64,000 nucleotides of DNA from Acidobacteriota bacterium (GTDB lineage Bacteria; Acidobacteriota; Terriglobia; Terriglobales; Acidobacteriaceae): contig JAJZBZ010000001.1 in NCBI GenBank assembly GCA_021846275.1, forward strand, positions 124,001 to 188,000. The letters are read 5' to 3'. The notes under the pieces were generated by a model. The model was given only the letters and a program-made list of their open reading frames with translations, searched no databases and was not told the origin of the DNA. This document shows positions 13,335 to 51,876 of this stretch, piece by piece. A program made the translations under genes and the position numbers. Each line of letters opens with the position of its first letter. Within the stretch, counting starts at the first letter, position 1.

Positions 13335-13566
13335 AGTGGTCAGTCGTCAGGGGTCAGTCGTCAGGGGCGGAAGCTGTGATTCCACCCAAGCGGAAGCTCG
13401 GATGAGGCACCCGGCTTTTACTGACGGCTGCCGGCTGACAGCAGATTCCCTGCGGGAATGACAACAAAAAGCAAAGACAACGGCAAAGGCGGGTGCAACG
13501 GCCTTGCTGATCCCTGACGGCTGATCCCTGACGGCTGACCCCTGACGGCTGACCCCTGACGACTGT
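13335..13566. repeat. Composite repeat block (heptads, CCCAAGCGGA module, REP)
   Basis: Contains runs of the 7-mer CTGACGR on either strand (13335-13369 and 13500-13566), the module CACCCAAGCGGAAGC (from 13382) and one REP hairpin unit, AGCAGATTCCC-TGC-GGGAATGACAAC (13440-13466). The same three modules recur in several other intergenic regions of the window. The rest of 12980-13579 shows no gene. Confidence 0.8.
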
Positions 13567-13579
13567 TTTGCGACTGGGG

Positions 13580-13750
13580 TTAGTTGGTGGGGATCGGGGT
13601 GGTGCGGAGGGGGGTGGTCTGGGTGGCGGCGGCGTGGCGGCGCATGCAGAGGAAGCCGAGGCGGCAGAGCGCGTAGGCGGAGAGGACGCCGAGAGCGAGC
13701 GAGCCGAGGATGGCGCAGAGGAGCATGAGGAGGTTGATGGCGTTCTGCAT
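13580..13750 (-). CDS. Small single-pass membrane protein, hypothetical
   Basis: 56 aa: one hydrophobic helix (about residues 5-34, INLLMLLCAILGSLALGVLS), then CMRRH and a short Thr/Pro-rich tail. An AGGAG lies about 12 bases before the ATG. The open frame extends much further upstream only as antisense to uvrA, so the short start is preferred. It is divergent from uvrA, about 270 bp away. I do not recognise a family; its reality rests on the coherent membrane helix and the ribosome-binding site. Confidence 0.5.
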   Translation of the reverse strand: MQNAINLLMLLCAILGSLALGVLSAYALCRLGFLCMRRHAAATQTTPLRTTPIPTN

Positions 13751-14017
13751 GGCGCTGCTCGACTCCTGAACCTGCGGCTGGCCCGGGCGGAAATGGGGGG
13801 AGGGCCTGAGGCGCAGTTTTGATGACCGACAAAGGAATTGTCGCAGAGAACGGGAGGAAATTGGAGGGGGGTGGTGTTGGCAAATAGAATACCTGTGAGC
13901 GGCTTCCCGGAATGGATATGAGCGTGCGGCAGCGGGCTGCTGTGGGGAAGAAATCTGCGCCGAGGGGTGATGCGGCGCGAGGCGCAGTCGAGTGGGCAAC
14001 AGGACGAGAGGCGACGG

Positions 14018-16954
14018 ATGAGCATTACGCACATCACGGTGAGGGGTGCGCGGCAGCATAACCTGCGCGATGTGACGGTGCGGATTCCAAGGAATCGTCT
14101 GACGGTGGTGACGGGACTGTCGGGTTCGGGGAAGAGTTCGCTGGCGTTTGACACGATTTATGCCGAGGGGCAGAGGCGGTATGTGGAGACGCTGTCGGCG
14201 TATGCGCGGCAGTTTCTGGACCAGATTGAGCGTCCGGATGTGGACGCGATTGAGGGGCTGAGTCCGGCGATTTCGATTGAGCAGAAGACGACGAGCCGGA
14301 GTCCGCGATCGACGGTGGGGACGATTACGGAGGTCTACGATTATCTGCGGCTGCTGTATGCGTCGGTGGGCGTGCCGCATTGTCCGCAGTGCGGGAGGCC
14401 GATCGAGCGGCAGACGGCGGAGCAGATTGTGCAGCGCGTGCTGGGCGCGGGCAATGGGACAGACGCTGGCGGCGAGCGGGTGGTGGTGATGGCTCCGGTG
14501 GTGCGCGGACGGAAGGGCGAGTTTCGCGAGCTGCTGGAGGAGCTGGATCAGCAGGGGTTTCGGGCGCGGATTGACGGGGAGATGCGCGACCTGACGGAGA
14601 CGGTTCTGCTGGATCGGCGGAAGAATCACACGATTGAGGCGGTGGTGGACCGGATTGTGCTGAAGCCGGGCGCGGAGAAGCGGTTGGAGGCGGCAATCGG
14701 GCGCGCGTTGCAGATGGCGGCGGGACTGGTGATTGTGGCGACGGGCACGGGCGACCGGCGCGAGGAGCAGTTGTATTCGACCTCGATGGCGTGTCCGGAT
14801 TGCGGGCTGGACGTGCCGAAGCTGGAGCCGAGGAGCTTCAGCTTCAACTCGACGTATGGCGCGTGCGAGGAGTGTCATGGGCTGGGGTCGCTGTATGACT
14901 TCGATCCGGCGAAGGTGATTACGGACTGGTCCAAGCCGCTGCTGGATGGCGGGCTGGGACCGGGTTCGTCGTCGCAGTATCTGGTGAGGCTGATTCAACT
15001 GGCGGCGAAGCGGCATGGGATCGATGTGAAGCAGCCGTTTGAGCAGTTACCGAACAAGCAGCAGCATCTGCTGGTGTATGGGCCGCCGCGCGGGGAGAGT
15101 TCGGGGTTTCACGGGATTCTGGAGTATCTGCGCGAGAGCCTGGAGGACGTGAAGAGCGAAGGATATCGCGAGTACATGATGGGGTTCATGACGGCTTCGG
15201 TGTGCAAGGCCTGCAAGGGGCACAGGTTGAAGCCGGAGTCGCTGGCGGTGACGGTGGGCGGTCGGTCGATCGGGGAGTTTACGGCGCTGCCGCTGGAGCG
15301 CGCGGTGGAGGCGGCGCGCGGGCTGGAGTTTACGGCGCGCGAGGCGATGGTGGCGGAGCGGATTCGGCGCGAGGTGGTGGAGCGGCTGGAGTTTCTGGTG
15401 GGAGTGGGGCTGGGATACCTGACGCTGGAGCGGAGCGCGGCGACGCTGAGCGGCGGGGAGGGCCAGAGGATACGGCTGGCGACGCAGATCGGGTCGAGGC
15501 TGCGCGGAGTGTTGTATGTGCTGGACGAGCCGTCGATCGGGCTGCACCAGAGGGATAATCAGAGGCTGATTGAGGCGCTGGAGCGGCTGCGGGATCTGGG
15601 CAATACGGTGCTGGTGGTGGAGCACGATGAGGATACGATTCGCGCGGCGGATTACGTGCTGGACCTGGGACCGGGCGCGGGACGGCTGGGCGGCGCGGTG
15701 GTGGCGGAAGGGACGCCGACGGAGATTATGCGCGTGGCGGAGTCGCTGACGGGCGAGTATCTGAGCGGGCGCAGGAGCATTCTGCACCGGACGAAGCCGA
15801 GGCGGCTGACCGGGCGCTGGCTGACGGTGACGGGCGCGCGGGAGCACAATCTGCGCGAGGTGACGGCGCGGTTTCCGCTGGGCGTGATGACGGTGGTGAC
15901 GGGAGTGAGCGGCAGCGGGAAGAGTACGCTGGTGAATGACATTCTGTATCGGTCATTGGCGCAGACGGTGTATGGGTCGCGCGAGGAGCCGGGAAATCAC
16001 GACGGGATGGAGGGCGTGGAGCAGATTGACAAGGTGATCCGCATCGACCAGTCGCCGATTGGGCGGACGCCGCGGTCGAATCCAGCGACGTATACGCAGT
16101 TGTTTACGCCGCTGCGGGAGCTGTATGCGATGTTGCCGGAGTCGAGGGAGCGCGGGTACAAGGCGGGACGGTTCAGCTTCAACGTGACGGGTGGGCGGTG
16201 CGAGGCCTGCCAGGGCGATGGGCAGCGGCGGATCGAGATGAATTTTCTGCCGGATGTGTATGTGGAGTGCGAGGTGTGCGGCGGGAAACGCTATAACCAG
16301 GAGACGCTGGCGGTGCGGTTTCACGGGCTGTCGATTGCCGACGCGCTGGAGCTGACGATTGAGGACGCGCTGACGGAGCTGGGCGACGTGCCGCAGCTAA
16401 GGCAGAAGCTGCAGACGCTGGTGGATGTGGGACTGGGGTATGTGCATCTGGGGCAGAGCGCGACGACGCTCTCTGGCGGCGAGGCGCAGAGGATGAAGCT
16501 GGCGCGGGAGCTGTCCAAGCGGCAGACGGGCAGGACGCTGTATCTGCTGGACGAGCCGACGACGGGGCTGCACTTTGACGACGTGAGGAAGCTGCTGGAG
16601 GTGTTGCACCGGCTGACGGACATGGGGAATACGGTGGTGATTATCGAGCATAATCTGGACGTGATCCGGAATGCGGACTGGATTCTGGACATGGGACCGG
16701 AGGGCGGCGAAGGCGGCGGATGCGTGGTGGCGGAGGGTCGTCCGCTGCGCGTGGCGGAGTGCGCGGAGTCGCATACGGGGGAGTTTCTGCGGCGGTATTT
16801 TGCCGAGCATGGAGCGCCGGAGGATGTGACGGATGAGCCGTTGACGGCGGAGACGGAAAAGACGGCGGCGAAACCAGCGAAGGTCGAGAAAAGGGCAGCG
16901 GCAAAGACAGGGTCAAAGACTGCGGCGAAGGCAAGGGCGAAATCAAAGACATGA
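14018..16954 (+). CDS. uvrA: Excinuclease ABC subunit A
   Basis: DNA-damage recognition ATPase of nucleotide excision repair, 978 aa. Two ABC modules: Walker [10 protein letters not shown] and GVSGSGKST; signatures [16 protein letters not shown] and [16 protein letters not shown]; Walker [16 protein letters not shown] and [15 protein letters not shown]. Zinc motifs appear as [14 protein letters not shown] with CEECHGLGS, and CEACQGDG with [11 protein letters not shown] chose [10 protein letters not shown] because the family begins there; 17 upstream codons are open. A Lys/Ala-rich tail of about 30 residues ([17 protein letters not shown] onward) extends beyond the usual end. Overlaps the next gene as ATGA. 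Confidence 0.97.
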
Positions 16955-17895
16955 GCATGAGCGACAACGACGAGTGGTCCTTGCCGGAAGAGCGGAGCGA
17001 GGCGGGCGAAGCGACGCAGGCTGACGGCGACGCGGCGCGAGTGGATGGCGAGGCGGCGTGGATGAGCGTTGTGGCTCCGCCGGTGCATCGCGTGCCGAAT
17101 GCGGCGGATGCGATGGTGTTTCTGTTGCTGCTGGGGATGGGCCTGGTGGCGATGGTGGCGGTGATTGGGGTGGGGTTGAAGCTGCACTGGTTCGGGTGGC
17201 GGGATCCGGCGAAGCTGCTGACGGATACGCGCGTGGCGCTGGGGTCGCAGTTGGGGATTTATGTGGTGGCGCTGGTGGCGGCGGTGCCGATTTACAGAAC
17301 GATGTGGGGTCGCGGGCTGATGGAGGGTTTGCAGTGGCGGCCACGGGTGGCGATGCGGCTGGCGAAGCGGCTGGTGCTGGTGGCCGTGGGGTGCGATGTG
17401 ATGGCGGCGGTGGGCAATGCGCTGCTTCCCTTCCCGCAGCATGCGCCGATTGACAGGATGTTTACGACGGCGGGCGACGCCTGGATGCTGTTTGCGTTTG
17501 GCGTGACGGCGGCTCCGTTTTTCGAGGAGATGATCTTTCGCGGGTTTCTGGTGCCGACGCTGGCGACGGCGTGGGAGTGGGCGCGGGAGCGGGTGACGGG
17601 TCAGGAGTCGCGCGGAGTGGATGCGGAGGGGTTTCCGGTGTGGGGCACGGGCGCGATGATCTTTGCGGCGCTGGGTGCGAGCGTGCCGTTTGCGCTGATG
17701 CACGGGGCGCAGGTGAGCCATGCGTGGGGGCCGCTGAGTTTGCTCTATGGGGTGAGCCTCGTTCTCTGTGCCGTCCGGCTGAGGACGCGCTCGCTGGCGG
17801 CGAGCATGGTGGTGCATGCGAGCTACAACTTCCTGCTGTTTGCGGCGATGTTCGTGCAGTCGGGTGGGTTCCGGCATCTGGAACGGTTGCAGTGA
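16951..17895 (+). CDS. CPBP-family intramembrane glutamic endopeptidase
   Basis: 314-aa integral membrane protein of the CAAX-protease/bacteriocin-processing (Rce1-like) family. After an acidic, probably cytosolic N-terminus of about 45 residues come several helices. Motif 1 is [10 protein letters not shown] (EExxxR), motif 2 [12 protein letters not shown] and motif 3 HASYNFLLF, which together form the active site of this family. Its start overlaps the uvrA stop by 4 nt, so it is co-translated with uvrA although the functions look unrelated. Substrate unknown. Confidence 0.9.
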
Positions 17896-17904
17896 CGACG
17901 CGGC

Positions 17905-18004
17905 GGACAGAAGCAGATTCCCTTCGGGAATGACAACCAGAAGGGCAACAGCAAAAACAAGTGCAACGGCAAGGGCAAAAAGCAAAGGCAGCTGCAAAAG
18001 TAAC
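17905..18004. repeat. REP unit plus GGCAAA-type hexamer run
   Basis: One REP hairpin unit (AGCAGATTCCC-TTC-GGGAATGACAAC, from about 17911) followed by about 65 bp of degenerate GGCAAM hexamers. It separates the CPBP protease from the permease on the same strand. Confidence 0.8.
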
Positions 18005-18031
18005 AGCGCGTGCGTGGTAGGCTCAGACGAA

Positions 18032-19447
18032 ATGAGGGACGAGAGCAAGGGACAGGAGCCGACGCAGGAGCCGACGCACGAACGGACGCGGGAACTGCCG
18101 CGCGTGCTGGGCACGAGCCACGCTGCGGCGATTGTGGTGGGGACGATCATTGGCAGCGGAATTTTTCTGGTGCCGACGGAGATGATGGCGGCGGTGGGGT
18201 CGTCGAAGCTGGTGTATGCGGCGTGGGTGGTGGGCGGGCTGCTGTCGTTGTTTGGCGCGATGACGTATGCGGAGCTGAGCGCGATGATGCCGTATGCGGG
18301 TGGGGAGTATGTGTATCTGCGCGGGGCGTATGGGGACAGGACGGGATTTCTGTATATGTGGACGTGGTTCGCGGTGGCGAAGCCGGCGTCGATTGCCTCG
18401 GTGACGAGTGGACTGGCGCGGACGCTGGGGATTTTTGCGGCGTTTCACTGGCTGGATGGGCGCGCGGTGGGCGGAGTGTGGCCGGTGGAGTGGTCGCAGG
18501 TGTTTGCGATTGCGGTGACGTGGGGGATTACGGGGCTGAACTATCTGGGGATCAAGAAGGCCGGGGATTTTCAGGTGGTGTTCACGGTGCTGAAGGCGGT
18601 GCTGATCCTGATTGTGGTGGGCTTCTGCTTCGGGTATGCGCATGGGGCGTGGGCGAACTTTGCGACGGGCGTGCCGGTGACGGGCGCGGGATGGGCCGCG
18701 ACGGCGAAGGGATTCATGATTGCGCTGATTGCGACGCTGTGGGCGTATGACGGGTGGAACGACCTGACGATGGTGGCCGGCGAGGTGAAACGGCCGGAAC
18801 GGGCGCTGCCGGTGGCGCTGATTGGCGGGCTGGTGGTGGTGGGCGGGCTGTTCATGGCGACGAACGCGGCGATTCAGTATGTGTTGCCGGCGGGAGCGAT
18901 TGTGGCGACGCCGAGGCCGGCGGTGGCGGCGCTGGCGGTGGTGGCCGGACCGGGCGGCGCGGCGCTGGTGGCGGCGGCGATGGCGCTGAGCATCTTTGTG
19001 ACGCTGAACGGGACGATCATGTCGGGCGCGCGGGTGCCGTTTGCGGCAGCGCGGGATGGGCTGTTTTTCCGGCGGTTTGCCGAGGTGCATCCGAGGTTTC
19101 AAAGCCCGGCGTTCTCGCTCGTGGTTCAGGCGGGGCTGTCGAGCCTGCTGCTGCTGGTGCTGGGGCGGTTTCAGCAGTTGTTTGAGCTGGCGGTCTTTGC
19201 GGAGTGGCTGTTTTACATGCTGACGGCGACGACGGTGTTCTGGTATCGGCGACGGATGCCGGAGATGGCGCGACCGTATCGGGTGTGGGGATATCCGGTG
19301 GTGCCGCTTGTCTTCATTGCGAGCGCGGGGGTGGTGCTGGTGGCGAGTTTTGCGGGGAATCTGCGCGGGTCGCTGATGGGGACGGGGCTGATTCTGGCGG
19401 GGCTGCCGCTGTTTGCGTGGCTGAAGCGGACGCGGGTCGGCGCGTGA
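18032..19447 (+). CDS. APC-superfamily amino-acid permease
   Basis: 471-aa polytopic transporter with about 12 helices. The first helix carries the substrate-backbone motif GTIIGSGIFLVP, and FVTLNGTIMSGARVPFAAARDG and WAYDGWNDLTMVAGEVK follow, as in LAT-type (SLC7-like) and YkbA/SteT exchangers. The N-terminus has a small tandem QEPT-like repeat. The ATG at 18032 follows the REP block; upstream in-frame sequence is repeat-derived. Expected to exchange or import amino acids across the inner membrane; specificity cannot be read from the sequence. Confidence 0.9.
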   Translation: MRDESKGQEPTQEPTHERTRELPRVLGTSHAAAIVVGTIIGSGIFLVPTEMMAAVGSSKLVYAAWVVGGLLSLFGAMTYAELSAMMPYAGGEYVYLRGAYGDRTGFLYMWTWFAVAKPASIASVTSGLARTLGIFAAFHWLDGRAVGGVWPVEWSQVFAIAVTWGITGLNYLGIKKAGDFQVVFTVLKAVLILIVVGFCFGYAHGAWANFATGVPVTGAGWAATAKGFMIALIATLWAYDGWNDLTMVAGEVKRPERALPVALIGGLVVVGGLFMATNAAIQYVLPAGAIVATPRPAVAALAVVAGPGGAALVAAAMALSIFVTLNGTIMSGARVPFAAARDGLFFRRFAEVHPRFQSPAFSLVVQAGLSSLLLLVLGRFQQLFELAVFAEWLFYMLTATTVFWYRRRMPEMARPYRVWGYPVVPLVFIASAGVVLVASFAGNLRGSLMGTGLILAGLPLFAWLKRTRVGA

Positions 19448-22494: not shown

Positions 22495-22527
22495 CTCAAC
22501 GGACACCTGACCTTGATTGAAATCGCA

Positions 22528-36285: not shown

Positions 36286-36400
36286 CAGAAGCAGATTCCC
36301 TTCGGGAATGACAACAAGAAAGGCAAGAACAAAAGCAACGGCGAGGGCTTTTACTGACGGCTGACGACTGACGGCTGACAACCTGGAACTGGATACCCTG
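36286..36400. repeat. Composite repeat block beside the FRG gene
   Basis: One REP hairpin unit (AGCAGATTCCC-TTC-GGGAATGACAAC, from about 36290), a GGCAAR hexamer run and CTGACGR heptads (to about 36380). Same module order as the other blocks. Confidence 0.8.
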
Positions 36401-38896: not shown

Positions 38897-39326
38897 GAGA
38901 TTCCTCCGGAAAAGCAGGCACGATTGAGCGAAACGCTCACGGCGCATCGCACGGGAATTGTATCAACCATCGCATGGAGGCATTGCATGCAGCAGACGCG
39001 CGTTCGCGCCGTGGCCGCTTCCGTTGGTCGCGGGTGGGTGTGGTTGAGGACGGTGGCATCTGTTTTCCCCACCCAAGCGGAGCCTGGATGGGGCACCGGC
39101 GTTTTTACTGACCACTGACGGCTGACGACTGACGACTGAAAAGCAGATTCCCTTCGGGAATGACAACAAAAAAGCAACGGGAATAGCAAAAGCAGGGGCA
39201 TGGGGCGGTGTGGTGCGGGATGGGATTTTAATTCTGCGCAACCTTGGTCGAGCTTCCGGGTTGGAATAGGGTTAGGATGTTTCTGGCTGCGCGGTTTGCG
39301 GCTGCGGGTGATGGGAGGGTATGAGT
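38897..39326. repeat. Divergent intergenic region holding a composite repeat block
   Basis: About 430 bp without a gene. It contains the GCATTGCATGCAGCAGACGC module (38983-39002 onward), CACCCAAGCGGAGCC (39064 onward), CTGACGR heptads (39110-39138) and one REP unit (39140-39168). Promoters for the acyl-CoA synthetase and the VWFA-related gene must lie here, but I could not pick convincing -35/-10 pairs. Confidence 0.75.
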
Positions 39327-40454: not shown

Positions 40455-40482
40455 GGCTGAGGCTTGGGTGGCGTGGATGAGT

Positions 40483-40518
40483 CGTCAGGGGTCAGTCGTC
40501 AGGGCATTGCATGCAGCA
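40483..40518. repeat. Truncated composite repeat left of the DUF262 gene
   Basis: Two CTGACGA-type heptads (reverse orientation) followed by GCATTGCATGCAGCA, after which the sequence diverges from every other copy of this module. The break suggests the DUF262 locus was inserted within a repeat block that resumes at 42280. Confidence 0.65.
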
Positions 40519-40633
40519 TCTCCCTCGGTGATTTGTTTCTTGAGGGGCTTCTTCTCCAGATCAAAATGCTCACTGGAATGAAGTCCTCAGTTTCGTGTAT
40601 ACAATGGGGCGATGCGTCTGCGAGGACTTTACC

Positions 40634-42124
40634 ATGAAGATGCTTGCTGAAACACGCGCGATTGACAAGATATTCAAACGTCGGGACCGCTATGATGTTC
40701 CAGACTGGCAGCGCCAGAAGGTTTGGAATCGCGACAAAAAGCAGATGTTAATCGACTCCATTCTGCGCGGGTGGAAGTTGCCGAAGTTCTATTTCATCGA
40801 ATCCGCTGGTGACAACTACCTCGTCGAGGACGGGCAGCAGCGCCTTAACGCCATATGGGAGTTCTTCTCAAATGAACTCCCGCTGAGCGACGAGGCCTCA
40901 AAGAGATATGGTGGTGCCCGCTACTATCGTGATTTGACGCGCGACTTCTCGGACGCGTTTGATGATTTCGAGATTGAATATGATCTTATCTCAGAGGCAA
41001 GCGATGAGGAACTTAAAGAATTTTTCCAACGTCTTCAGGGCGGAATGCCGCTAACTAGCAGCGAAAAGCTCAATGCAGTCGAGAGTGAACTGACCAACTA
41101 TTGCAGGTCAATGACAAACCATAAATTATTTCGCGAAACAATTGCCGTTCCCAACACTCGTTATGCGCACTTCGACATCATGACGAAGGTAGCGATGATC
41201 GAAATTGAGGGCTTAGATGCTCGGCTTCGTCTCACTGCAATTCGGGACGTTCTCGTAGCTCAAAGAAACTTTGCGTCAACCTCAGCAATTGGAAAGCGGA
41301 TCAAATCGGCGCTCGATTGCCTTCATACTGCCTTTTCAGCTAACGCCAATACGCTTCGCACCCGTACTATCGTGCAGTCCCTTCTAACGCTGACCTGCAA
41401 ACTTATCGATACTGGGCGATTCAAAGGCAACGAAGTTAAGTTGCGACAATTTTTTGACACTTTCATGTCTGAGTTGGCAAGACAGGTAGAAATGGGACAA
41501 TCTGCAACCGACAGCGATTACGTCAGGTTTCAGCAATCTGTCAGCGCCAACACGAAGGGCGCTGCTCGTACTAGGCAGGAAATACTGCTACGAAAGCTCT
41601 TTCTTCTTGCCCCGGAATTGGCTGAGATTTTCGACTCATCCGTCGTTGCTGAAAGTGGAGTCTCTGGTCGCATCGGCAACCTCGGCAAGTCGATCGCGGA
41701 TCTTGTCGGCCTGACCAATGCCAAATACGCAGCCAGCCATGGTGAAGATTTGTTCAAACCAACAAGCAAGACAACCCAAGGGTTGCTTCGGATACAGAAA
41801 CCAGTACGCGATTTAGACGACTTCAAGAATCTCGTCGACGATCTTTACTTTCTTTTTCGAGAATCGGCTGGATCGCGTCTGACTGATCGTTGGCCAAAAT
41901 CCTTTATACACTTAAACGACATAAGAACAGACCTGCGCCACGATTTGGACCATGGTGATGCAGGGAAAGTGCGCGCGAAACGCCGTAGGGCGGGAAAAAC
42001 GTTTCAACTCTATGCCGGCAGCGGCACTCCATATACGCTGGAGCCAGTGAAGTTTCCCTTGGTCCAATCCGCACTCCTGTCTGCGATCGAAGGTGATCTG
42101 AGAAAGATTCTCTATGAACTTTAG
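40634..42124 (+). CDS. DUF262-domain protein with HEPN-like C-terminal motifs
   Basis: 496 aa, cytosolic. The N-terminal half is a DUF262 (GmrSD/ParB-Srx-like) domain: VPDWQRQKVWN, then DNYLVEDGQQRLNAIWEF with the DGQQR motif at residues 66-70, which in this superfamily hydrolyses nucleotides in phage-restriction enzymes. The C-terminal part (about 400-496) has IRTDLRHDLDHGD, holding two overlapping R-x4-H motifs (431-436 and 435-440) like those of HEPN ribonucleases. GAGGA is eight bases before the ATG. Much AT-richer than its surroundings and flanked by repeat modules, so probably an acquired defence gene. There is no GmrD HNH motif. Confidence 0.8.
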   Translation: MKMLAETRAIDKIFKRRDRYDVPDWQRQKVWNRDKKQMLIDSILRGWKLPKFYFIESAGDNYLVEDGQQRLNAIWEFFSNELPLSDEASKRYGGARYYRDLTRDFSDAFDDFEIEYDLISEASDEELKEFFQRLQGGMPLTSSEKLNAVESELTNYCRSMTNHKLFRETIAVPNTRYAHFDIMTKVAMIEIEGLDARLRLTAIRDVLVAQRNFASTSAIGKRIKSALDCLHTAFSANANTLRTRTIVQSLLTLTCKLIDTGRFKGNEVKLRQFFDTFMSELARQVEMGQSATDSDYVRFQQSVSANTKGAARTRQEILLRKLFLLAPELAEIFDSSVVAESGVSGRIGNLGKSIADLVGLTNAKYAASHGEDLFKPTSKTTQGLLRIQKPVRDLDDFKNLVDDLYFLFRESAGSRLTDRWPKSFIHLNDIRTDLRHDLDHGDAGKVRAKRRRAGKTFQLYAGSGTPYTLEPVKFPLVQSALLSAIEGDLRKILYEL

Positions 42125-42614
42125 GCACCCGATGGCAATTATTCGAGTTGCATCGAAATCACCGCACAACTCGCCTCTCCAAAGGTGAGATGACCGCTCT
42201 ATCGGGATGATGCGACGAGTATTCCTATCTATTTGTTTGTTCGGTAGCGAGCGGGGAGTTACAGAGGGTGCCGAGGGAAGTAGAAGCAGATTCCCTGCGG
42301 GAATGACAACAAAAAAGCAAAGACACCGACAGCGCTGGCATCAGTTTTACCCACCCAAGCGGAAGCTCGGATGGGGCACCTAACGCGTTTACTGACGACT
42401 GACGGCTGACGACTGACTACTCAGAAGCAGATTCCCTGCGGGAATGACAACAAAAAAAGCAAAGGCAACGGAAACCGCGGAAGCTACGGCTTCTGTGCGA
42501 ACTGCGGATGCGTTTTGCTGACGGCTGACGGCTGACGACTGACGACTCAACAGCAGATTCCCTGCGGGAATGACAACAAGAAAGGCAAAGGCAAGGGCAA
42601 AGCGGCGGTCTCGG
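42125..42614. repeat. Intergenic composite repeat block with three REP units
   Basis: After about 155 bp of unassigned AT-richer sequence, three REP units with TGC loops occur (42284-42310, 42426-42452, 42552-42578). Between them are CACCCAAGCGGAAGC (42348 onward) and CTGACGR heptads (42391-42421, 42520-42547). It lies between the convergent DUF262 and metH genes. Confidence 0.85.
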
Positions 42615-45600: not shown

Positions 45601-46133
45601 GCGGCGATGGCGTCATGACAGGCGGCGGCGGCGATCTTGGCCTGGAGCAGGTCCTGGCTGGTTTCGATGAGCAGGATGTGGACGCCGCCGGCGAGCAGGG
45701 CGTCGGCCTGCTGGCGATAGCTGGCGAGCATGGCGTCGTAAGTGATGTGGCCGAGCGAGGGCAGGCGCGTGGTGGGGCCGATGGAGCCGGCGACGAAGCG
45801 CGGCTTGTCGGGCGTGCTGAAGCTGTCGGCAACCTCACGGGCGAGACGCGCGGCGGCGACGTTCAGCTCGTGGACGCGGTCGGCGAGATCGTATTCGGCG
45901 AGGACGATGTCGGAGGAGCCGAAGCTGTCGGTCTCGATGATGTCACTGCCGGCGGCGAGGAATTCGGCGTGGATGTCGCGGATGACGTCGGGGCGCGAGA
46001 GGACGAGCAACTCGTTGCAGCCGTCCTTGCCCCAGTAGTCGTCGGGGGTGAGGTTGCGGCGCTGGATGTTGGTGCCCATGGCGCCGTCGTAGACGAGGAC
46101 GCGATGGCGAAGGAGAGTGAGAAAATCGGACAA
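42615..46133 (-). CDS. metH: Cobalamin-dependent methionine synthase
   Basis: 1172 aa. Transfers methyl from methyltetrahydrofolate through B12 to homocysteine. Homocysteine domain starts VYDGAMGTNIQRR, with zinc cysteines in IVGGCCGTTPDHL; a pterin-binding domain follows; the B12 domain has DVHDIGKNLV with the lower-ligand His, and LSGLLVKSTLEM; the C-terminal reactivation domain includes SRYSFGYPACPNLEDQ. No ATG precedes the first motif: TTG at 46133 with GAGG six bases upstream is my choice; the open frame extends 91 codons further. I saw no SAM or cobalamin riboswitch upstream. Confidence 0.95.
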   Translation of the reverse strand: MSDFLTLLRHRVLVYDGAMGTNIQRRNLTPDDYWGKDGCNELLVLSRPDVIRDIHAEFLAAGSDIIETDSFGSSDIVLAEYDLADRVHELNVAAARLAREVADSFSTPDKPRFVAGSIGPTTRLPSLGHITYDAMLASYRQQADALLAGGVHILLIETSQDLLQAKIAAAACHDAIAAAVASGQPRAALQIQVTLEATGTMLLGSEIGAALAVLEALQPDVIGLNCATGPEEMNDAVRFLCQNSTLPVAIQPNAGLPQNEGGHAVYKLTPAELAAHHRRFVTEYGIAIVGGCCGTTPDHLRAVAQAVAGLAPLVRNVSPQSVAASAFTAVPLEVDGQPVVIAEEMNTTTRLDTFRNLVRAADYEGILSMSRRLIGEGSQLLDICCAIVGEDEQAYMNGVLEKIATRIPAPIVVDSTEANVLEEALKRIPGKPVINSINLEDGEKRTTRVLPMARRYGAAVIALTIDEDGMALTADKKVAIAHRIHDMAVHRFGLRPQDLIFDPLTLPISTGQEDYRTAAIETLEAVRRIKLELPGVKTILGVSNISFGLGAYSRRVLNSVFLKEAVDRGLDTAIVNYSRIYPLYKIPEREVELARRLLFQQWDSPDGTRVEGMRVDPLQAYMAHFSSLGKSSTPEPEIAVEDLTVEDRLKQLIIRGERTIGSGDHKQSLEEALEAALLTHSPLALINDVLLDAMKTVGELFGSRKMQLPSVLDSAAVMKAAVAYLEPKMEKSDSGGKGTMVLATVKGDVHDIGKNLVDIILTNNGYRVLNLGIKQPSDAILAAARQQPTDAIGLSGLLVKSTLEMKYVLQDLERLNLQIPVICGGAALTRKYVEEDLRQEYSGPVYYAEDAFAGLAIMSDLTNPELREQRLTEGRTVKIFNRSNVATADITTVTLTAEGRSPVVEPPPNIPQPPFWGARVFKDYPLEELFPFLNETALFKNQWQLKTASQSDYLRLVEEKYRPILTELQQEVQSSGIFHPQSVIGFYPCNSFGDDLVIYDPEDHAREIERFQFPRQAQGRRLCIADFFLPASAGRPDVLGLTIVTIGHQASLETQKLFDSGDFTRYLYLHGLGVETAEALAEYVHKQARTLLGIATADSPKVADLFHQKYRGSRYSFGYPACPNLEDQARIFHLLKPEESIGVHLTEGFHLEPEQSTNAILVHHPQAKYFVA

Positions 46134-46371
46134 ATAGGCCTCGGAGTGACGGAATGCGGATAGACTCGTTGATAACAGGATAAATGTTTGCTGGCTGAAC
46201 GGTGGGACGGATGCCGGTCGAATTCCGGAACTGGATGGGTTGTGCGCGATGGCGGCGAGGCGGATGGAGTTGCGGATAATGAGATGGAAGGATCGGGGTG
46301 TGCCGAGCACGAAGCACGTCTGAGACGCATGAGTACGATCCTTGCGCACTGCTTGAAATACCTGGAATTCT

Positions 46372-47313
46372 ATGAGCCAAAACCTGGGCACTCCGGTTGT
46401 TTGCACGTTGTATGAGGGCCATTATCACCATGGCCTGGCCGCACTGATCAACTCGCTGTATCGAGCGGGGTTTGCGGGCAGGATGGTGGTGGGGTTTCGC
46501 GGGGAACTGCCGCCGTGGATCGGGCAACTCCGAGCGATCGACGCGATGCGCTATTCGCTGGATGGGCGGATGCAGATTGCGTTTGAGCGGCTGGATGTGG
46601 CGATGCACTTTACCAACTACAAGCCGGAGTTTCTGCTGCGGATTCTGAACGAGAGCAGGACGGAAGCCGGGGCGGTGTATCTGGACCCGGATATTACGCT
46701 GCGCTGCTCGTGGAATTTTATGGAGCAGTGGAGCCGGTTTGGCGTTTGCCTGTGTGAGGAGATTGTCGGCGTGAACATGGCGAATGACCATCCGCTGCGC
46801 TGGATGTGGAGGAAGCTGGCGCGGGAGCGGGGATGGGGCGAGCCGGTGCGCGAAAGCTGGCGCTATTACAATGGCGGGTTCATCGCGGTGAAGGCGGAGC
46901 ATCGGCGGTTTCTGGAAGTGTGGCGGGATGCGATCGGGATGATTGAGGAGACGGGCGCGAGCCTGAGCGACTTTGGACCGAGGAATCGGGAATACATCTT
47001 TCACATGGCCGATCAGGATGCGCTGAATCTGGCGGTGATGTATACGAGCGAGCCGCTTTCGACGGTGGGTCCGGAGGGAATGGGCTTTGTGCCGGGCGGA
47101 TTCACGATGTATCACGCAACCGGCGCGACGAAGCCGTGGAGAAAGCCGTTTCTGGTTTCGGCGCTGCGGGGAGTTCCGCCATCGGGCGCGGACAAGGATT
47201 TTCTGGAGAAGATGGATGGGCCGATCCGGGCGTATTCGCGATGGCAGTTGCTGAGGAAACGGCTGGCCTGCAATATGGCCGCGCTGATGGGACGCTTCTA
47301 CGCGAGGCGGTGA
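46372..47313 (+). CDS. Glycosyltransferase-like protein (GT-A fold, DxD)
   Basis: 313 aa, no signal peptide. PVVCTLYEGHYHHGLAALINSLYRAGF opens a GT-A-like Rossmann half; AGAVYLDPDITL holds a DxD-type metal motif (Asp105/Asp107); RYYNGGFIAVKAEHRRFLEVW and HMADQDALNLAVMY match the acceptor-side motifs of GT8/Nucleotid_trans-type proteins. Donor and acceptor are unknown. It is divergent from metH with about 240 bp between starts; that gap holds no clear element. Confidence 0.75.
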   Translation: MSQNLGTPVVCTLYEGHYHHGLAALINSLYRAGFAGRMVVGFRGELPPWIGQLRAIDAMRYSLDGRMQIAFERLDVAMHFTNYKPEFLLRILNESRTEAGAVYLDPDITLRCSWNFMEQWSRFGVCLCEEIVGVNMANDHPLRWMWRKLARERGWGEPVRESWRYYNGGFIAVKAEHRRFLEVWRDAIGMIEETGASLSDFGPRNREYIFHMADQDALNLAVMYTSEPLSTVGPEGMGFVPGGFTMYHATGATKPWRKPFLVSALRGVPPSGADKDFLEKMDGPIRAYSRWQLLRKRLACNMAALMGRFYARR

Positions 47314-47317
47314 GGCG

Positions 47318-47366
47318 GTGGGTCAGGGGTCAGTTGTCAGGGGTCAGCCGTCAGGGATCAGTTACA
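47318..47366. repeat. Run of CTGACGR-type heptads (reverse orientation)
   Basis: GGTCAGGGGTCAGTTGTCAG and continuation: about six degenerate 7-mers with no REP unit, between the glycosyltransferase-like gene and the convergent ferredoxin gene. A shorter run occurs at about 47888-47918. Confidence 0.7.
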
Positions 47367-47398
47367 GTGATTTTTGGGGTGACAACTGGGTCCGGTAC

Positions 47399-47869
47399 TC
47401 AGCGCGCGGGCGTGAGCGCAGAGACAGGGACGAGCATGTCTTCCTTGCGCATGACGAGGGTGGTGGCGTTGAGCGTGGCCAGCTCGAATCCGTGGCCGTG
47501 GGTGATGGCGTCGGTGGGGCAGGCCTCGACACAGTAGCCGCAGAAGATGCAGCGGTTGTAGTCGATGTTATAGGTTTTGGCGTAACGTTCGCTGGACGAA
47601 ATGCGCTGCTCAGCGGTGTTGTCGGCGGCTTCGATGAAGATGCAGTTGGACGGACAGGCGGCGGCGCAGAGGAAACAGGCGACGCATTTTTCGAGGCCGT
47701 TTTCGTCGCGCTGAAGCTCGTGAGCGCCGCGGAAGCGGGGCTGGAAGACGGCTCCGCGCAGAGGGCCTGCGCCGTCGGGGTAGTTTTCGACTTCAGTGGG
47801 CTGGAGCATCTCTTTGAAGGTGATGCCCATGCCTTTGGCGATGGCGGCCGCGTTGCGAACGATCGACAT
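47399..47869 (-). CDS. nuoI: NuoI-like 2x[4Fe-4S] ferredoxin subunit
   Basis: 156 aa. Two CxxCxxCxxxCP clusters (KCVACFLCAAACPSNC and RCIFCGYCVEACPTDA), the N-terminal helix GMGITFKEMLQP and YPDGAGPLRGAVFQPRFRG match the NuoI subunit of NADH:quinone oxidoreductase, which passes electrons to the terminal cluster. Normal family length. No other nuo gene is in the window, so it is either a stand-alone copy or a second complex's part. No strong ribosome-binding site precedes the ATG; the larger open frame upstream is antisense noise. Confidence 0.88.
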   Translation of the reverse strand: MSIVRNAAAIAKGMGITFKEMLQPTEVENYPDGAGPLRGAVFQPRFRGAHELQRDENGLEKCVACFLCAAACPSNCIFIEAADNTAEQRISSSERYAKTYNIDYNRCIFCGYCVEACPTDAITHGHGFELATLNATTLVMRKEDMLVPVSALTPAR

Positions 47870-48180
47870 GGGTTCAGTATACGACGAGTGGTCAGTCGTC
47901 TGGGGCCAGACGTCAGGGTTGGTCGGTGACGGCTTCCTGATTGGGGTGGTTGGGTTCGTTCTGACGGGGCGGTGAGGATGTGGGAGACGGTTTGCCCGCC
48001 ACATCCTCATGGCGGCGTGTCGGACGGAATCGGACACGCGCCCCCTGTCAGTACCCGGATCCGTGCGGCTGATGGGCGCTCCGCTTAGCACCGCCAACAG
48101 TGCCTGATCCGTGGTCTGGCCAGCGCCCCATCCTTCAGCGCCGCCTCTTTGCAGCGCCGCATCGGGGAACGCGCGATCCT

Positions 48181-48897
48181 TCATTGCTCCATCGGCGGAG
48201 CCGGCGAGCCGTCGGACCAGTGGCTGGCGATCATCATGAAGACGGTGTAGTGCGCCTGCCTGTCGATGGCTGCGATGAGCGGCGAACCGGGGAGATTTGC
48301 GCCCCAGTCGGCGGCGACGCTGCCGGGCGCGTAAAACATGAGATGCGAGTGCCAGCTGCCGACCGCATCGTTGAGGTACTGCTGTTTCGACATCATGTAA
48401 CACATGGCTCCGGGCGCGGGCGCGGGCAGCTCGCCGCTGGCCTGAGCCGCTGCGATCCGCTGGGCGATCTCGGCCTTCGATTTGCCGACAAGCACGAGCG
48501 TTGTCTTCAGAAAGTAGAGCCGGGAGATGGTGGCGGCCGCAGCGTGATTGAAGCAGTTGGGCGAGCGCATCTTCGGGTTCCAGAAGTCCGGCGCGTCGGT
48601 GTTCTTGGCCCAGGAGCGTTCGACGTAGCAGACGAAGCCGTTGGTGCCCCTGACGGCGGTGGTGTATCCGTGCGGACCGAGGATCATGATCTCGGCCTTG
48701 TCGGAGATCGATGGCGGCGCGGCGCTGCGCGCGAGCGCGATCTCGGCATTCGGATCGGCGATCATGTATTTGCTGAGCGGCGCCATCTGCGCATACATGG
48801 CCTGTTGCTCTTCGGCTCGGGTGATGGTGGTGGATGCAGCGAGGCAGGCGAGCGCCAGCAGTTGCATTGCAGTTCTTATTCGCAATCTCGTCTTCAT
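48181..48897 (-). CDS. Exported protein of unknown function
   Basis: 238 aa with signal peptide MKTRLRIRTAMQLLALACLA and cleavage near TRAEEQ. The mature part contains GTNGFVCYVERSW, PKMRSPNCFNHAAA and GAMCYMMSKQQYLND, giving three cysteines that could pair in the periplasm, and ends DGSPAPPMEQ. No family recognised. GGGAGA lies six bases before the ATG. It lies 71 bp downstream of the TetR gene on the same strand, so is likely co-transcribed and under the TetR operator. Confidence 0.75.
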   Translation of the reverse strand: MKTRLRIRTAMQLLALACLAASTTITRAEEQQAMYAQMAPLSKYMIADPNAEIALARSAAPPSISDKAEIMILGPHGYTTAVRGTNGFVCYVERSWAKNTDAPDFWNPKMRSPNCFNHAAAATISRLYFLKTTLVLVGKSKAEIAQRIAAAQASGELPAPAPGAMCYMMSKQQYLNDAVGSWHSHLMFYAPGSVAADWGANLPGSPLIAAIDRQAHYTVFMMIASHWSDGSPAPPMEQ

Positions 48898-48968
48898 TGG
48901 ATCTCCCTGTGTGGCGTTCCGGGTGGATGCTGGTTGAACTCGGGCTGCTGCCAGCGGATGATGCCGAT

Positions 48969-49631
48969 TCACTTTCGTGACCGGGCTGAAACGAAGATCG
49001 TTTCGAGGTAGCGATGGAGATGGTCGACGGACGCAATCGCTGCTGACGTGCCGGACTGCGCCTTGGCGAGGATGAATGCGCCCTGAAGCACGCTGACGAT
49101 GTGGATGGCGAGGCTCTTTGCGCTCCAGCGGGGCCGTGTGCGCAGCCGGGCCAAGGCCGCGCGGACGTCGGATTCGAGCCAGTCGATGTGTTCGAAGAGG
49201 GCCTTGTTGCAGGTTTCGCGAATGGCTGGATGGGTGGCGTAGGTCTCCTGAACGAGGGTGCCGAGCAGACAGGTGAATTCGGGCAGTTCGCCGCGAAGGA
49301 GCTTTCTGCGCTGGAGAACGTAGGCGAGCAGGCGCTGGACCGGGTCGTCGAGTTTGCGGTGAGGCGCGCGGTCGAACAGGTCCATTGCGCTGGACTGAAA
49401 GTCCTCGGCAGCGGCGATGGCGAGCGCTTCCTTGCTGGAGAAGTGGTGGAAGAATGCACCCTTGGTGACTCCGGCATCGGCGCAAAGCTCGTCGACGGAG
49501 GTGTTGGCATAGCCGCGCTGGCGGATGCGTCGGATGGCCGCGGTGAGCAGCCTGCGGCGCGCGTCTCCGCGTGTTCGGGGCGTGGGCGTTGGGCGCGGTT
49601 TCCGGATGGTTTGCGCTTTTGTCGTTTTCAT
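48969..49631 (-). CDS. TetR-family transcriptional regulator
   Basis: 220 aa. Basic N-terminal extension (about 24 residues), then the TetR HTH: RRRLLTAAIRRIRQRGYANTSVDELCADAGVTKGAFFHHFSSKEAL. The ligand domain resembles the TetR_C group with LLGTLVQETYATHPAIRE, often controlling reductases or efflux. A 20-bp palindrome sits five bases upstream of its start, arguing for autorepression. Downstream is the exported protein of unknown function. Confidence 0.92.
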   Translation of the reverse strand: MKTTKAQTIRKPRPTPTPRTRGDARRRLLTAAIRRIRQRGYANTSVDELCADAGVTKGAFFHHFSSKEALAIAAAEDFQSSAMDLFDRAPHRKLDDPVQRLLAYVLQRRKLLRGELPEFTCLLGTLVQETYATHPAIRETCNKALFEHIDWLESDVRAALARLRTRPRWSAKSLAIHIVSVLQGAFILAKAQSGTSAAIASVDHLHRYLETIFVSARSRK

Positions 49632-49636
49632 TATTG

Positions 49637-49656
49637 CATACCGACCAGTCGGTATG
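49637..49656. promoter_or_regulatory. Probable TetR operator
   Basis: CATACCGAC-CA-GTCGGTATG: 9-bp perfect arms, two-base centre, six bases upstream of the TetR ATG. The TACCGAC...GTCGGTA form is common for TetR regulators. Confidence 0.85.
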
Positions 49657-49740
49657 TTTGTAAGAGAAACGGAAAGCGATTGTCAAGGGAAATCGACTGC
49701 GGCGGAAGAGAATTCCGCCGGCTGGGCCGGTTGTCGGTGG

Positions 49741-50739
49741 TCAGTTCTGCGGAGCCGGATGAGCGGCGGCTGCGCTGGCGTTGGCTGGGCGGGTAACGGC
49801 TGGGTGCGCGACATTGGAGCGGCCCTGGTTGTTGGCTGGCGGAGTGGTGACGGGGGTGCGCTCGTGGCGCGGATGGGCTGTGTGAGCGCGTGCGGCGGCG
49901 GCTTCGGGATGGCAGAGCGGCGAATCCTGGCCGCCGAGCAATGCGGACTGCGCGCTGGTGAGCTGGCAGAGCTTCTGCTGCATGGGCGCGGCGTGCTCGT
50001 CGCCTAGAGCCTGGGTGATGTCGAGGCCGGTGGCGGGATCGACGGAGTATTCGTAGACGTAGTTCTGAGCGGGTTTTGCGGAGCCGGACGCGGAACCGGA
50101 TATGGCACCGAAGTCGAGGTGGAGCCAGGTGTCGAGGGTGGAGTTGCCGCGCACGTCGGTGAAGAGGCCGTAGACCTCGGTGGCGGTGACGCCGGTGGCG
50201 GGTGAGGCGGTGCGCAGGGCTGCTCCGGTGGAGCTGTGGAGCGGATCGGTGGAGCGAATCCAGCGGGCGTGCCAGGCGTGGTCGGCGGGGCTGTAATAGG
50301 CGGCGGTGAAGTAGAGCGAGGCGTCGCACTGGAGGCAGTTCCGCCAGGTGAGGCCGAGTTCAGGGAGTATCTGGCTGCCGAGGGTGAGCCAGTTGAGGTA
50401 GCGGAGGCGGTAGCCGGAGACGAGCGGGACGAGCTGGCGATGGCTGAGCGAGACGCTCCAGAGGGTGAAGCGGTCGGAGGCGGGCGAGGATTGGGGCGTG
50501 GAGCGGAGCGTGGTGACGACGAGCGCGGAGTCCCACTGGACGCCGATCTCGCGGATGGCCGAGTAGGACTGCGCGGCGAGCGAGTCGGTGACCCAGCGGA
50601 CGGTGGGCGCGTCGGCGGGCGAGCGGAAGTCGATCCAGTGGAAGGACTGCGGCGCGGACTGGGCTCGGGCGGCGTTGCCGACGAATGCGAGCAGCAGAGA
50701 TAAGAACAGGACGCGGTGAGAATGCTGGATGGTCGGCAT
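49741..50739 (-). CDS. Exported protein of unknown function
   Basis: 332 aa. Signal peptide VLFLSLLLAFVGNAARAQ, then a beta-rich domain (FHWIDFRSPADAPTVRWVTDSL, LTWRNCLQCDASLYFTAAYY, YVYEYSVDPATGLDITQALG) and a Pro/Ala/His-rich disordered tail of about 65 residues. No family recognised; looks like an acidobacterial periplasmic or surface protein. The ATG at 50739 is the first sensible start, as the open frame upstream runs through the 235-bp repeat array and encodes only repeat translation. Confidence 0.7.
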   Translation of the reverse strand: MPTIQHSHRVLFLSLLLAFVGNAARAQSAPQSFHWIDFRSPADAPTVRWVTDSLAAQSYSAIREIGVQWDSALVVTTLRSTPQSSPASDRFTLWSVSLSHRQLVPLVSGYRLRYLNWLTLGSQILPELGLTWRNCLQCDASLYFTAAYYSPADHAWHARWIRSTDPLHSSTGAALRTASPATGVTATEVYGLFTDVRGNSTLDTWLHLDFGAISGSASGSAKPAQNYVYEYSVDPATGLDITQALGDEHAAPMQQKLCQLTSAQSALLGGQDSPLCHPEAAAARAHTAHPRHERTPVTTPPANNQGRSNVAHPAVTRPANASAAAAHPAPQN

Positions 50740-50910
50740 GGTCGGTTCGATTCCCTGCCCTGCGAAATGGTTGCGGGAGCCTGGAAATAGTGTATCCGGC
50801 ATTGCATGCAGGCATTGCATGCAGCAGCAGCGCGTTCGCGCCGTGGCCGCTCCCGCTGGTCGCGGATGGGCGTTTGCTGAGGCCGACGGGAAAGCAAAAA
50901 CAAATGCAGA
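50740..50910. repeat. Leading module of the repeat array
   Basis: Contains two partial GCATTGCATGCAG motifs (50802-50826) followed by CAGCGCGTTCGCGCCGTGG and TGGTCGCGG, the same module seen near 38983, then hexamer-like sequence leading to the first REP unit at 50911. Confidence 0.7.
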
Positions 50911-51615
50911 AGCAGATTCCCTTCGGGAATGACAACAAAAAAGGCATTGCATGCAGCGGACGCGCGCTTTGCGCGCCACGGACGGTTGTGGCGCTCCCGT
51001 TGGTCGCGGGTCGACTGTCGGTAAGGACGAAGCAGGAAGCAGATTCCCTTCGGGAATGACAACAAATACGCAAAGACAAGAACAACAGCAAAAGCAAAGG
51101 CAGGGGCTTTGCTGACGACTGACGACTGACGGCTGACGACTCAGAAGCAGATTCCCTTCGGGAATGACAACAAAAAAGGCATTGCATGCAGCGGACGCGC
51201 GCTTTGCGCGCCACGGACGGTTGTGGCGCTCCCGTTGGTCGCGGGTCGACTGTCGGTAAGGACGAAGCAGGAAGCAGATTCCCTTCGGGAATGACAACAA
51301 ATACGCAAAGACAAGAACAACAGCAAAAGCAAAGGCAGGGGCTTTGCTGACGACTGACGACTGACGGCTGACGACTCAGAAGCAGATTCCCTTCGGGAAT
51401 GACAACAAAAAAGGCATTGCATGCAGCGGACGCGCGCTTTGCGCGCCACGGACGGTTGTTACCGCTTCTGTTGGTCGCGGGTGGACTGTCGGTGAGGACG
51501 AAGCAGGAAGCAGATTCCCTTCGGGAATGACAACAAATACGCAAAGACAAGAACAACAGCAAAAGCAAAGGCAGGGACTTTGCTGACGACTGACGGCTGA
51601 CGACTGACGACTCAG
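50911..51615. repeat. Three 235-bp tandem repeats
   Basis: Exact period of 235 bp: units begin at 50911, 51146 and 51381, and a fourth REP start follows at 51616. Each unit is REP, GCATTGCATGCAGCGGACGC module with a GCGCGC-TTT-GCGCGC palindrome, a GGTCGCGGG segment, a second REP, GACAAGAACAACAGC hexamers, then CTGACGR heptads. Units 1 and 2 are nearly identical; unit 3 has a few substitutions (for example TTACCGCTTC for TGGCGCTCCC). Confidence 0.95.
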
Positions 51616-51876
51616 AAGCAGATTCCCTTCGGGAATGACAACAAAAAAGCAAGGGCAAGTACAAAAGCAAGAACAAAGGCAACGGCAACGGCAAAGGCAA
51701 GGGCAAGAACGACGGCAAAAGCAGTGACAAAGGCAAACAGGAGCAGGAGCGATGGCGGAGGCTGATTCCGGGAATTTTCTCCGCAGGTGAAAAGGATTTG
51801 GGCTGGGGCAAAGTTCCCCTGTAGAAATACCTTTGCGCGCGGGCTGGAGGCGGTAGGATAGAGCTACCGGAATCCG
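51616..51876. repeat. Trailing REP and hexamer run upstream of lolD
   Basis: Fourth REP start (51616-51642) and about 90 bp of GGCAAR hexamers to about 51745, then about 130 bp of unique sequence that should contain the lolD promoter; I saw no convincing boxes. Confidence 0.75.

What the first reader, a model, noticed from the sequence alone, without database searches (positions are those of the whole stretch)
13335..51745. Dispersed modular repeat family: REP hairpin, CTGACGR heptads, CCCAAGCGGA box, GCATTGCATGCAGC box and GGCAAR hexamers
The same modules recur, in similar order but different combinations, at about 13.3-13.6, 17.9, 36.3, 39.0-39.2, 40.5, 42.3-42.6, 47.3 and 50.8-51.75 kb, always between genes. 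The REP unit (ATTCCC-TTC/TGC-GGGAAT) occurs about 14 times. This looks like a REP-type system mobilised by an unseen transposase, or a set of chromosome-organisation or RNA-processing sites. I know of no description of the composite.
Basis: partly seen in the sequence, partly recalled or inferred. Interest (0 to 1): 0.7.

Follow-up and report, generated by a model that had tools for sequence, protein, structure and literature searches.

The report
Replication-oriented mosaic of bacterial repeats
Short hairpin repeats between the genes of this acidobacterium are assembled in a fixed order and nearly all point the same way relative to DNA copying, which suggests that they spread during replication and gives a way to find out how.

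Summary
Order is fixed (B, R, K hexamers, h heptads, R); 283 of 288 neighbouring modules share a strand.

New result: orientation follows replication. 76 of 80 blocks point along the G-rich strand of their flanks, as do R in 27 of 29 other genomes and 62 of 62 sites in one relative, where the switch lies at gidB-parA. Low-GC control words do not (19 of 31), and gene direction does not explain it. One Granulicella-like genome is an exception.

The parts differ. P (CCCAAGCGGA box) matches the terminal hairpins of Y1 (RAYT-like) transposons of relatives. R has no such link; it resembles CGTC-type REPs and Neisseria dRS3 and occurs in frame inside genes. B often starts right behind stop codons (groES, groEL, trxB, rplI in other genera).

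Best reading: hairpin elements inserting on the lagging-strand template, multiplied by local duplication; the enzyme for R and B is unknown. New variant of a known kind.

The parts
13050..13325 (+).
   Evidence: at least 25 copies in own genome, none in 29 relatives at E<=0.001; alignment of 23 copies; no Rfam match at gathering score
13338..13367 (-). Reverse-strand heptad array (14-bp form GGTCAGTCGTCAGG)
   Evidence: TRF
13384..13418 (+). P module (CCCAAGCGGA box, hairpin + GGCACCCGG)
   Evidence: pattern; hairpin class
13444..13463 (+). R hairpin (REP)
13506..13565 (+). h heptad array, 14-bp form
   Evidence: TRF
17916..17935 (+). R hairpin, 21 nt behind a stop codon
17944..17997 (+). K hexamer array
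   Evidence: TRF
36294..36379 (+). R hairpin and h array
38980..39165 (+). Block B-P-h-R
40480..40517 (+). Reverse-strand heptads followed by a B core
42289..42601 (+). Block R-P-h-R-h-R-K
47322..47363 (-). Reverse-strand heptad array
   Evidence: TRF
50799..51737 (+). Largest block: B (doubled head), then 3.2 copies of a 235-bp unit (R-B-R-K-h), ending in R and a K array
   Evidence: TRF; module map

Best explanation
The blocks are intergenic mosaics of at least three separate short hairpin elements: R, a REP-like unit; B, a head-plus-hairpin unit that often sits directly behind stop codons; and P, a hairpin of the class that ends RAYT-like Y1 transposons in relatives. Two simple arrays (K hexamers, h heptads) and element E join them. 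Shown: copy number, order, shared strand, orientation along the leading-strand sequence, R and B lying in frame inside genes, local tandem duplication, and similar blocks at distant sites. Inferred: the hairpin elements insert as single-stranded DNA into the lagging-strand template, so that copies end up with the same polarity relative to the fork. K and h grow by slippage, whole units multiply by unequal exchange, and long blocks are copied by homologous recombination. The enzyme for R and B is not identified; no Y1 transposase was found in this genome.
For: Polarity: 76 of 80 own-genome blocks agree with the sign of flanking GC skew, blocks excluded. One R locus each from 29 of the 30 other R-bearing genomes: 27 agree. 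G524: 62 of 62 sites in the fetched stretches. Named contigs: 21 of 23. At |skew|>0.08 (all sites in brackets): E 19 of 19 (22 of 25), P in own 16 of 16, B in relatives 20 of 22 (23 of 35), P in relatives 26 of 33 (32 of 46). Controls: low-GC 8-mers 19 of 31 (20 of 37), G-rich words 72 of 100 (74 of 106). A 30-base R unit has 6 G and 7 C, so base composition cannot orient it. Skew and R orientation switch together in G524 at 457-459 kb, beside gidB and a ParA-type gene. In G123, whose contig starts at dnaA, 10 of 18 R are listed: nine at 1.15-2.04 Mb are + and the one at 2.38 Mb is -. With codirectional neighbours 23 blocks run with the genes and 20 against. Order: B-R 41, R-K 48, K-h 26 and h-R 39 adjacent steps, each above all 2000 within-block shuffles; 283 of 288 neighbours on one strand (tandem copies inflate the counts). 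R lies in frame in an Hsp70 gene (L024), a MutM gene (L028) and, twice, an own FAD oxidoreductase gene (L083); B in frame in mazG (L235). IS200/IS605 elements take the direction of replication by using the lagging-strand template (PMC5371812, passages).
Against: No Y1 match in the genome and no link between R and Y1 genes in the relatives examined, so the proposed chemistry has no identified enzyme. In G287 (148 R) many R form inverted pairs; of 12 singles 8 agree with a weak skew, of all 30 sites 17. Contrary blocks in the own genome: L032 minus, L034 (skew -0.125, heptads only), one of L060, L074; elsewhere L019 and L020. No insertion junction with an empty site from a near-identical strain was available; conserved flanks of the compared sites were 66-88% identical. 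Skew changes sign several times along contigs, which needs many inversions. No uninterrupted close homologue was compared for the in-frame cases.
Confidence: 0.5

Rival explanations
1. Passive relics. R, B, P and E inserted long ago by varied means; blocks now spread only by duplication and gene conversion. Polarity is inherited with the DNA, and later inversions flip repeats and skew together.
For: Block pairs that are 82-91% identical over 300-880 bp at separate sites; strong within-block duplication; K and h expansions differ between genomes of the genus.
Against: Does not by itself explain why orientation agrees with skew in 27 of 29 other genomes, nor R and B in frame within genes.
Confidence: 0.22
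2. Polar chromosome-organising sites (working like KOPS, Chi or AIMS, recalled): a protein reads the direction of R, B or h to act along the chromosome, and selection keeps the polarity.
For: Polarity in G524 without exception at 62 sites, many of them near oriC. Blocks are rare where skew is weak: 4 of 80 blocks have |skew|<0.1 against 8 of 20 block-free stretches (p 2e-4); one of the eight is an averaged sign flip, without it 7 of 20 (p 9e-4).
Against: R is in only 31 of 399 genomes of the class; counts within the genus range from 1 to 175; triple heptads are in 1 of 15 genomes of the genus. A housekeeping site should not vary so.
Confidence: 0.12
3. RNA-level elements: B is a 3'-UTR hairpin that protects or processes mRNA right behind the stop codon, and the other modules are attached stabilising hairpins.
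For: B-first blocks with a co-oriented upstream gene: 15 of 24 lie within 24 nt of its stop, against 1 of 17 for other blocks (hand count; p 3e-4). Outside the genus 13 of 15 fetched B cores begin -1 to +7 nt from a stop, several at the same gene. The inner three pairs of the B stem pair perfectly in 47 of 51, with one set of compensatory changes (the outer three are fixed by the pattern).
Against: Polarity follows replication, not transcription; 26 of 67 blocks have no co-oriented gene upstream; one B core lies in frame in mazG. No RNA data.
Confidence: 0.12

Closest known systems
CGTC-tagged REP superfamily (PMC3733652; abstract and passages seen)
   Same: R read on its complement is TGTC + ATTCCC-GNA-GGGAAT + CTG: tag of the CGTC/TGTC type, AT at the start of the stem, no dedicated transposase found, copies inside genes
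   Different: Stem 6 bp and loop 3 instead of 8-9 and 4-5; tail CTG, not CCA; head-to-tail arrays instead of predominant inverted dimers (inverted pairs do occur in G287); Acidobacteria are not among the five phyla the paper lists for CGTC
Neisserial intergenic mosaic elements with dRS3 (PMC3898611; passages seen)
   Same: Intergenic arrays in which a short palindrome with arms ATTCCC/GGGAAT goes with other repeat modules
   Different: dRS3 is ATTCCC(N8)GGGAAT, here N3; different companion modules; polarity with replication; phage integration role not tested
RAYT / TIRYT transposons and their repeats (PMC3733652 names four Acidobacteria with such genes)
   Same: P-type hairpins flank Y1 genes in inverted orientation in 5 of 37 loci of relatives; P in the window is the same hairpin class
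   Different: No Y1 match in this genome; R and B have no such link
IS200/IS605 family (PMC5371812; passages seen)
   Same: Orientation follows replication, as when the lagging-strand template is the target
   Different: No transposase of this family found here; elements of 20-65 bp
Cyanobacterial STRR heptamers (recalled, no call)
   Same: Intergenic tandem heptanucleotides
   Different: Different unit; here mostly tied to R, K or E blocks

Membership tests
CGTC REP superfamily (for R) | Unpaired CGTC (or TGTC/CCTC) tag next to the stem | tested here: met
   TGTC in the 23-mer used for (84 copies)
CGTC REP superfamily (for R) | Stem 8-9 bp, loop 4-5 nt | tested here: not met
   The 14 window copies and the 84 strict copies are 6 + 3. 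In one search the pattern fixes 6 + 3, and the next bases (G and G) do not pair in 120 of 120 own copies; longer-looped forms were not counted
CGTC REP superfamily (for R) | Tail CCA | tested here: not met
   CTG on the complement in most copies
CGTC REP superfamily (for R) | Inverted (HH) dimers predominate, clusters rare | tested here: not met
   283 of 288 neighbouring modules on one strand, clusters common; inverted pairs seen in G287
CGTC REP superfamily (for R) | Not associated with transposase genes | tested here: met
   For Y1 only; other transposase families not searched
Neisserial NIME/dRS3 | ATTCCC(N8)GGGAAT repeat | tested here: not met
   Same arms, N3
Neisserial NIME/dRS3 | Arrays with 30-160 bp companion repeats | tested here: met
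Neisserial NIME/dRS3 | Target of filamentous phage integration | not tested
   No search for phage at these sites
RAYT-associated REP (for P) | Hairpins flank a Y1 transposase gene | tested here: met
   Both sides, inverted, in 5 of 37 relatives' loci; one side in 5; none in 27; of 44 fetched, 5 duplicates and 2 contig-edge loci left out
RAYT-associated REP (for P) | Y1 transposase in the same genome | tested here: not met
   0 matches to PF01797 in own genome; 5 of 14 control genomes rang
RAYT-associated REP (for R) | R flanks a Y1 gene | tested here: not met
   R in the fetched surroundings of 2 of 37 Y1 genes, 1.2 and 2.2 kb away; 22 of the 37 are from R-bearing genomes, of 69 Y1 matches there
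IS200/IS605-like replication targeting | Orientation recapitulates replication direction | tested here: met
   not in G287
IS200/IS605-like replication targeting | Insertion into single-stranded lagging-strand template | not testable with these tools
   Needs transposition assays

The most novel reading that the evidence does not exclude
R and B are a class of short hairpin elements that insert into the lagging-strand template by a non-Y1 enzyme, B with a built-in preference for the position directly behind stop codons. Together with E and h they form polar, replication-reading tracts that mark fork direction along the chromosome.
Probability: 0.12. Interest if true: 0.88.

Novelty: new variant of a known kind. 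Interest (0 to 1): 0.6.

Why it matters
The 2013 paper on CGTC repeats left open how REP-like repeats without a transposase spread (PMC3733652, passages). Here a repeat of that type keeps replication polarity in 27 of 29 other genomes tested. That makes the question testable: look for new insertions and their strand in sequenced lineages, and for proteins that bind the single strand. The stop-codon-anchored B unit, seen behind groES, groEL, trxB and rplI in other genera and present in up to 89 copies in this genus, may be a cellular 3'-end element turned repeat, or the reverse.

Tried and rejected
RAYT as mobiliser of R: not supported. Gene-direction effect (terminator or mRNA tail) as the cause of orientation: rejected, 23 against 20 with codirectional neighbours. 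Avoidance of divergent promoters: 6 of 67 against 55 of 358, not significant (p 0.19). GNA-triloop signature of single-stranded DNA hairpins: 113 of 120 own loops fit T-N-C on the R strand, 7 do not, so I do not lean on it. E as a structured RNA: the 11 predicted pairs show no two-sided changes, and Rfam gave only sub-threshold scores. Empty-site comparison with G257, G376, G083 and G298: partly filled sites found, flanks too diverged for junctions. B as read-through coding sequence: rejected, its offset from the stop varies. Other transposase families (for example IS110) were not searched. Literature: search listings; none listed describes an acidobacterial composite, but the library is open-access only. 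Not followed: the figures and additional files of PMC3733652, where terminal repeats of acidobacterial Y1 genes are shown.
Full report
OBSERVATION. The modules are in the sequence at the stated places and far beyond chance. The window is G000:C5:124001-188000 of a 3.34-Mb genome in 13 contigs. Genome-wide there are 84 strict or 109 loose R, 102 B and 160 triple-heptad matches; the reversed-pattern controls gave 0, 0, 1 and 1. I fetched 53 stretches around these hits and mapped modules on both strands. With E added, 65 multi-module blocks (of 79) have 288 neighbouring module pairs, of which 283 are on one strand. The steps B-R (41), R-K (48), K-h (26) and h-R (39) exceed all 2000 within-block shuffles, and K-R and K-B fall below all of them; tandem copies inflate these counts. 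Units repeat in tandem inside blocks: 235 bp, 3.2 copies, in the window, and about 85 bp with eight R in L057. Blocks at separate sites share up to 882 bp at 90% identity. The midpoint of 10 of 80 blocks falls in a called ORF (home-made caller, some of these ORFs doubtful).

A MISSED PART. Window 13,050-13,325 holds element E, found through the block-to-block comparison. At least 25 copies were scored in this genome and none at E<=0.001 in the 29 relatives searched. In an alignment of 23 copies about 60 columns of the core average 0.91-0.98 identity to the commonest base, the rest 0.53-0.85. E is often followed by reverse heptads or B. It has no Rfam match at gathering score and no pair covariation. 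Its role is unknown.

ORIENTATION FOLLOWS REPLICATION. GC skew flips at the same point, from about -0.3 to +0.3. The point lies at gidB and a ParA-type gene, the usual neighbourhood of oriC (established knowledge). Further along C1 both R and skew flip again (plus near 182-231 kb, minus near 747-785 kb), and R-free samples have little or no skew. In the window's genome 52 of 54 plus blocks have positive flanking skew and 24 of 26 minus blocks negative (Mann-Whitney p 1e-11; flanks 200 to 2,700 bp from the block). One R locus from each of 29 other genomes: 27 agree. G524: 62 of 62 in the fetched stretches. Contigs from the named collection: 21 of 23. Where |skew|>0.08, R in relatives (the large G524 and G287 sets left out) agrees in 58 of 61, B in relatives 20 of 22, E 19 of 19, P in own 16 of 16, P in relatives 26 of 33, own heptad pairs 47 of 51 and own K 12 of 12. 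Without the cut the figures are 69 of 75, 23 of 35, 22 of 25, 16 of 16, 32 of 46, 47 of 52 and 12 of 12. Low-GC control 8-mers agree in 19 of 31 and G-rich words in 72 of 100. In G123, whose contig begins with dnaA and carries dnaN at 3.9 kb, all 11 samples from 0 to 2.01 Mb have positive skew (some near zero) and the 9 later ones are mixed (5 negative). Of its 18 R, 10 are listed: plus nine times between 1.15 and 2.04 Mb, minus at 2.38 Mb. The sample at 3.0 Mb has three minus and one plus. So the strand reading AGCAGATTCCC..GACAACAAA has the leading-strand sequence, which is the lagging-strand template.

EXCEPTION. G287 (genus label g7; a Granulicella strain also carries R) has many R as inverted pairs. 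The eight pairs read start 83-138 bp apart, with the TGTC tags outwards and differing insides. Its skew is weak; single R agree in 8 of 12 and all sites in 17 of 30.

THE SKEW ITSELF. It is very strong: 0.17-0.34 per 4 kb from 12 kb on in the window, with third-position skew +0.47 in 16 plus genes and -0.50 in 19 minus genes. A database paper gives about 2.5% as typical (PMC8941118, abstract in the listing). Twenty block-free stretches of the own genome, chosen by me between blocks, fall into strongly skewed and nearly unskewed ones. Four of 80 blocks have |skew|<0.1, against 8 of 20 such stretches (p 2e-4). One of the eight, L280, is an averaged sign flip; with 7 of 20 p is 9e-4. The group counts were made by eye. 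Sign changes along contigs imply inversions. In C13 two inverted 882-bp block copies 10 kb apart flank such a change, and contigs C7 and C11 both begin inside an E-type repeat. This suggests that blocks serve as recombination sites (inference).

WHAT THE PARTS ARE. P: 47 of 80 tags (G/T)GGGGCACC end a hairpin, with 29 different arm sequences, against 26 of 300 random places. Such hairpins flank Y1 (PF01797) genes in inverted orientation on both sides in 5 of 37 loci, on one side in 5, and not in 27 (L134, L135, L160, L164, L168). The window's genome has no Y1 match. R: in the 37 loci the nearest R is 1.2 kb from a Y1 gene; 22 of the 37 are from R-bearing genomes, out of 69 Y1 matches there. 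R lies in frame in an Hsp70 gene (L024), in a MutM gene (L028) and twice in an own FAD oxidoreductase gene (L083). In L024 the R segment lies in a region that is 13 residues longer than the best PDB match; in L028 the 117-position N-terminal Pfam model spreads over 136 residues around R. Close homologues without R were not compared. Orthologous sites: the 51.7-kb site has one R in G257 and none in G376; the 39.0-kb site has two R and long K runs in G376; at the other sites compared the relatives lack the modules. B: its core is GCATTGCATGCAGCRGMC plus a GC-rich hairpin. In 51 own copies matched with outer pairs GCG/CGC fixed, the inner three bases pair perfectly in 47, with two stem sequences that differ by compensatory changes. 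B-first blocks with a co-oriented upstream gene lie within 24 nt of the stop in 15 of 24, other blocks in 1 of 17 (hand count; p 3e-4). Of 15 fetched B loci outside the genus (L215, L228-L240, L247), 13 start -1 to +7 nt from a stop: groES four, groEL two, trxB-like one, rplI one, and an unnamed gene ending ..GD five. One (L235) is in frame in mazG and one (L247) is neither. Pfam was run on one or more of each gene type, the rest are named by C-terminal likeness, and some are the same gene in different genomes. K and h: arrays; triple heptads with at most 1 mismatch are in 1 of 15 genomes of the genus, B in 9 of 15, R in 15 of 15. R is in 31 of 399 sampled genomes of the class, all in the window's family.

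HOW IT WORKS. I read the blocks as mosaics of separate hairpin elements that insert with fixed polarity at replication forks and then duplicate locally. A review states that IS200/IS605 members take the direction of host replication because they use the lagging-strand template (PMC5371812, passages). The polarity is shown; the single-strand mechanism and the enzyme are inferred. Selection for polar sites and plain inheritance remain open, as set out among the rivals.

COMPARISON. In build the closest system is the Neisseria NIME: dRS3 is ATTCCC(N8)GGGAAT, together with RS repeats (PMC3898611, passages). In sequence type R is nearest to CGTC REPs (PMC3733652, abstract and passages) but fails on stem, loop, tail and dimer form, so I do not file it there. 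The same paper names Y1 genes of one group in four Acidobacteria, which fits P. I found no description of the acidobacterial composite or of its polarity in the listings.

Noticed in passing
window 13050-13325 and loci L176-L195: Element E: at least 25 copies, ~60-bp near-invariant core, found only in this genome among 30 searched.
   Followed up: partly
window 12000-64000; L248-L287: Extremely strong strand asymmetry (GC skew 0.17-0.34 in the window, third-position skew about 0.5), in long stretches whose sign flips, beside stretches with almost none.
   Followed up: partly
L080 3461-4322 and L081 3566-4426; starts of L048 and L068: Inverted 882-bp block copies 10 kb apart flank a skew flip, and two contigs begin inside the same repeat type; blocks may drive inversions and break assemblies.
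   Followed up: partly
L228-L234, L236-L240, L215: A ~36-nt hairpin unit sits right behind the stop codons of groES, groEL, trxB-like, rplI and an unnamed gene in several genera.
   Followed up: partly
L288-L295 (G287): R in inverted pairs enclosing varied, partly palindromic DNA, like tiny transposons with R as ends.
   Followed up: partly
L134, L135, L160, L164, L168: Y1 transposase genes bounded by inverted hairpins with variable stems but a constant GGGGCACCC tag.
   Followed up: yes
L146: A contig labelled Verrucomicrobia (Tous-C9LFEB) carries an exact R; transfer or mis-binning.
   Followed up: no
window 40595-42124: A gene with a GmrSD restriction N-terminal domain lies between two repeat blocks.
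   Followed up: no
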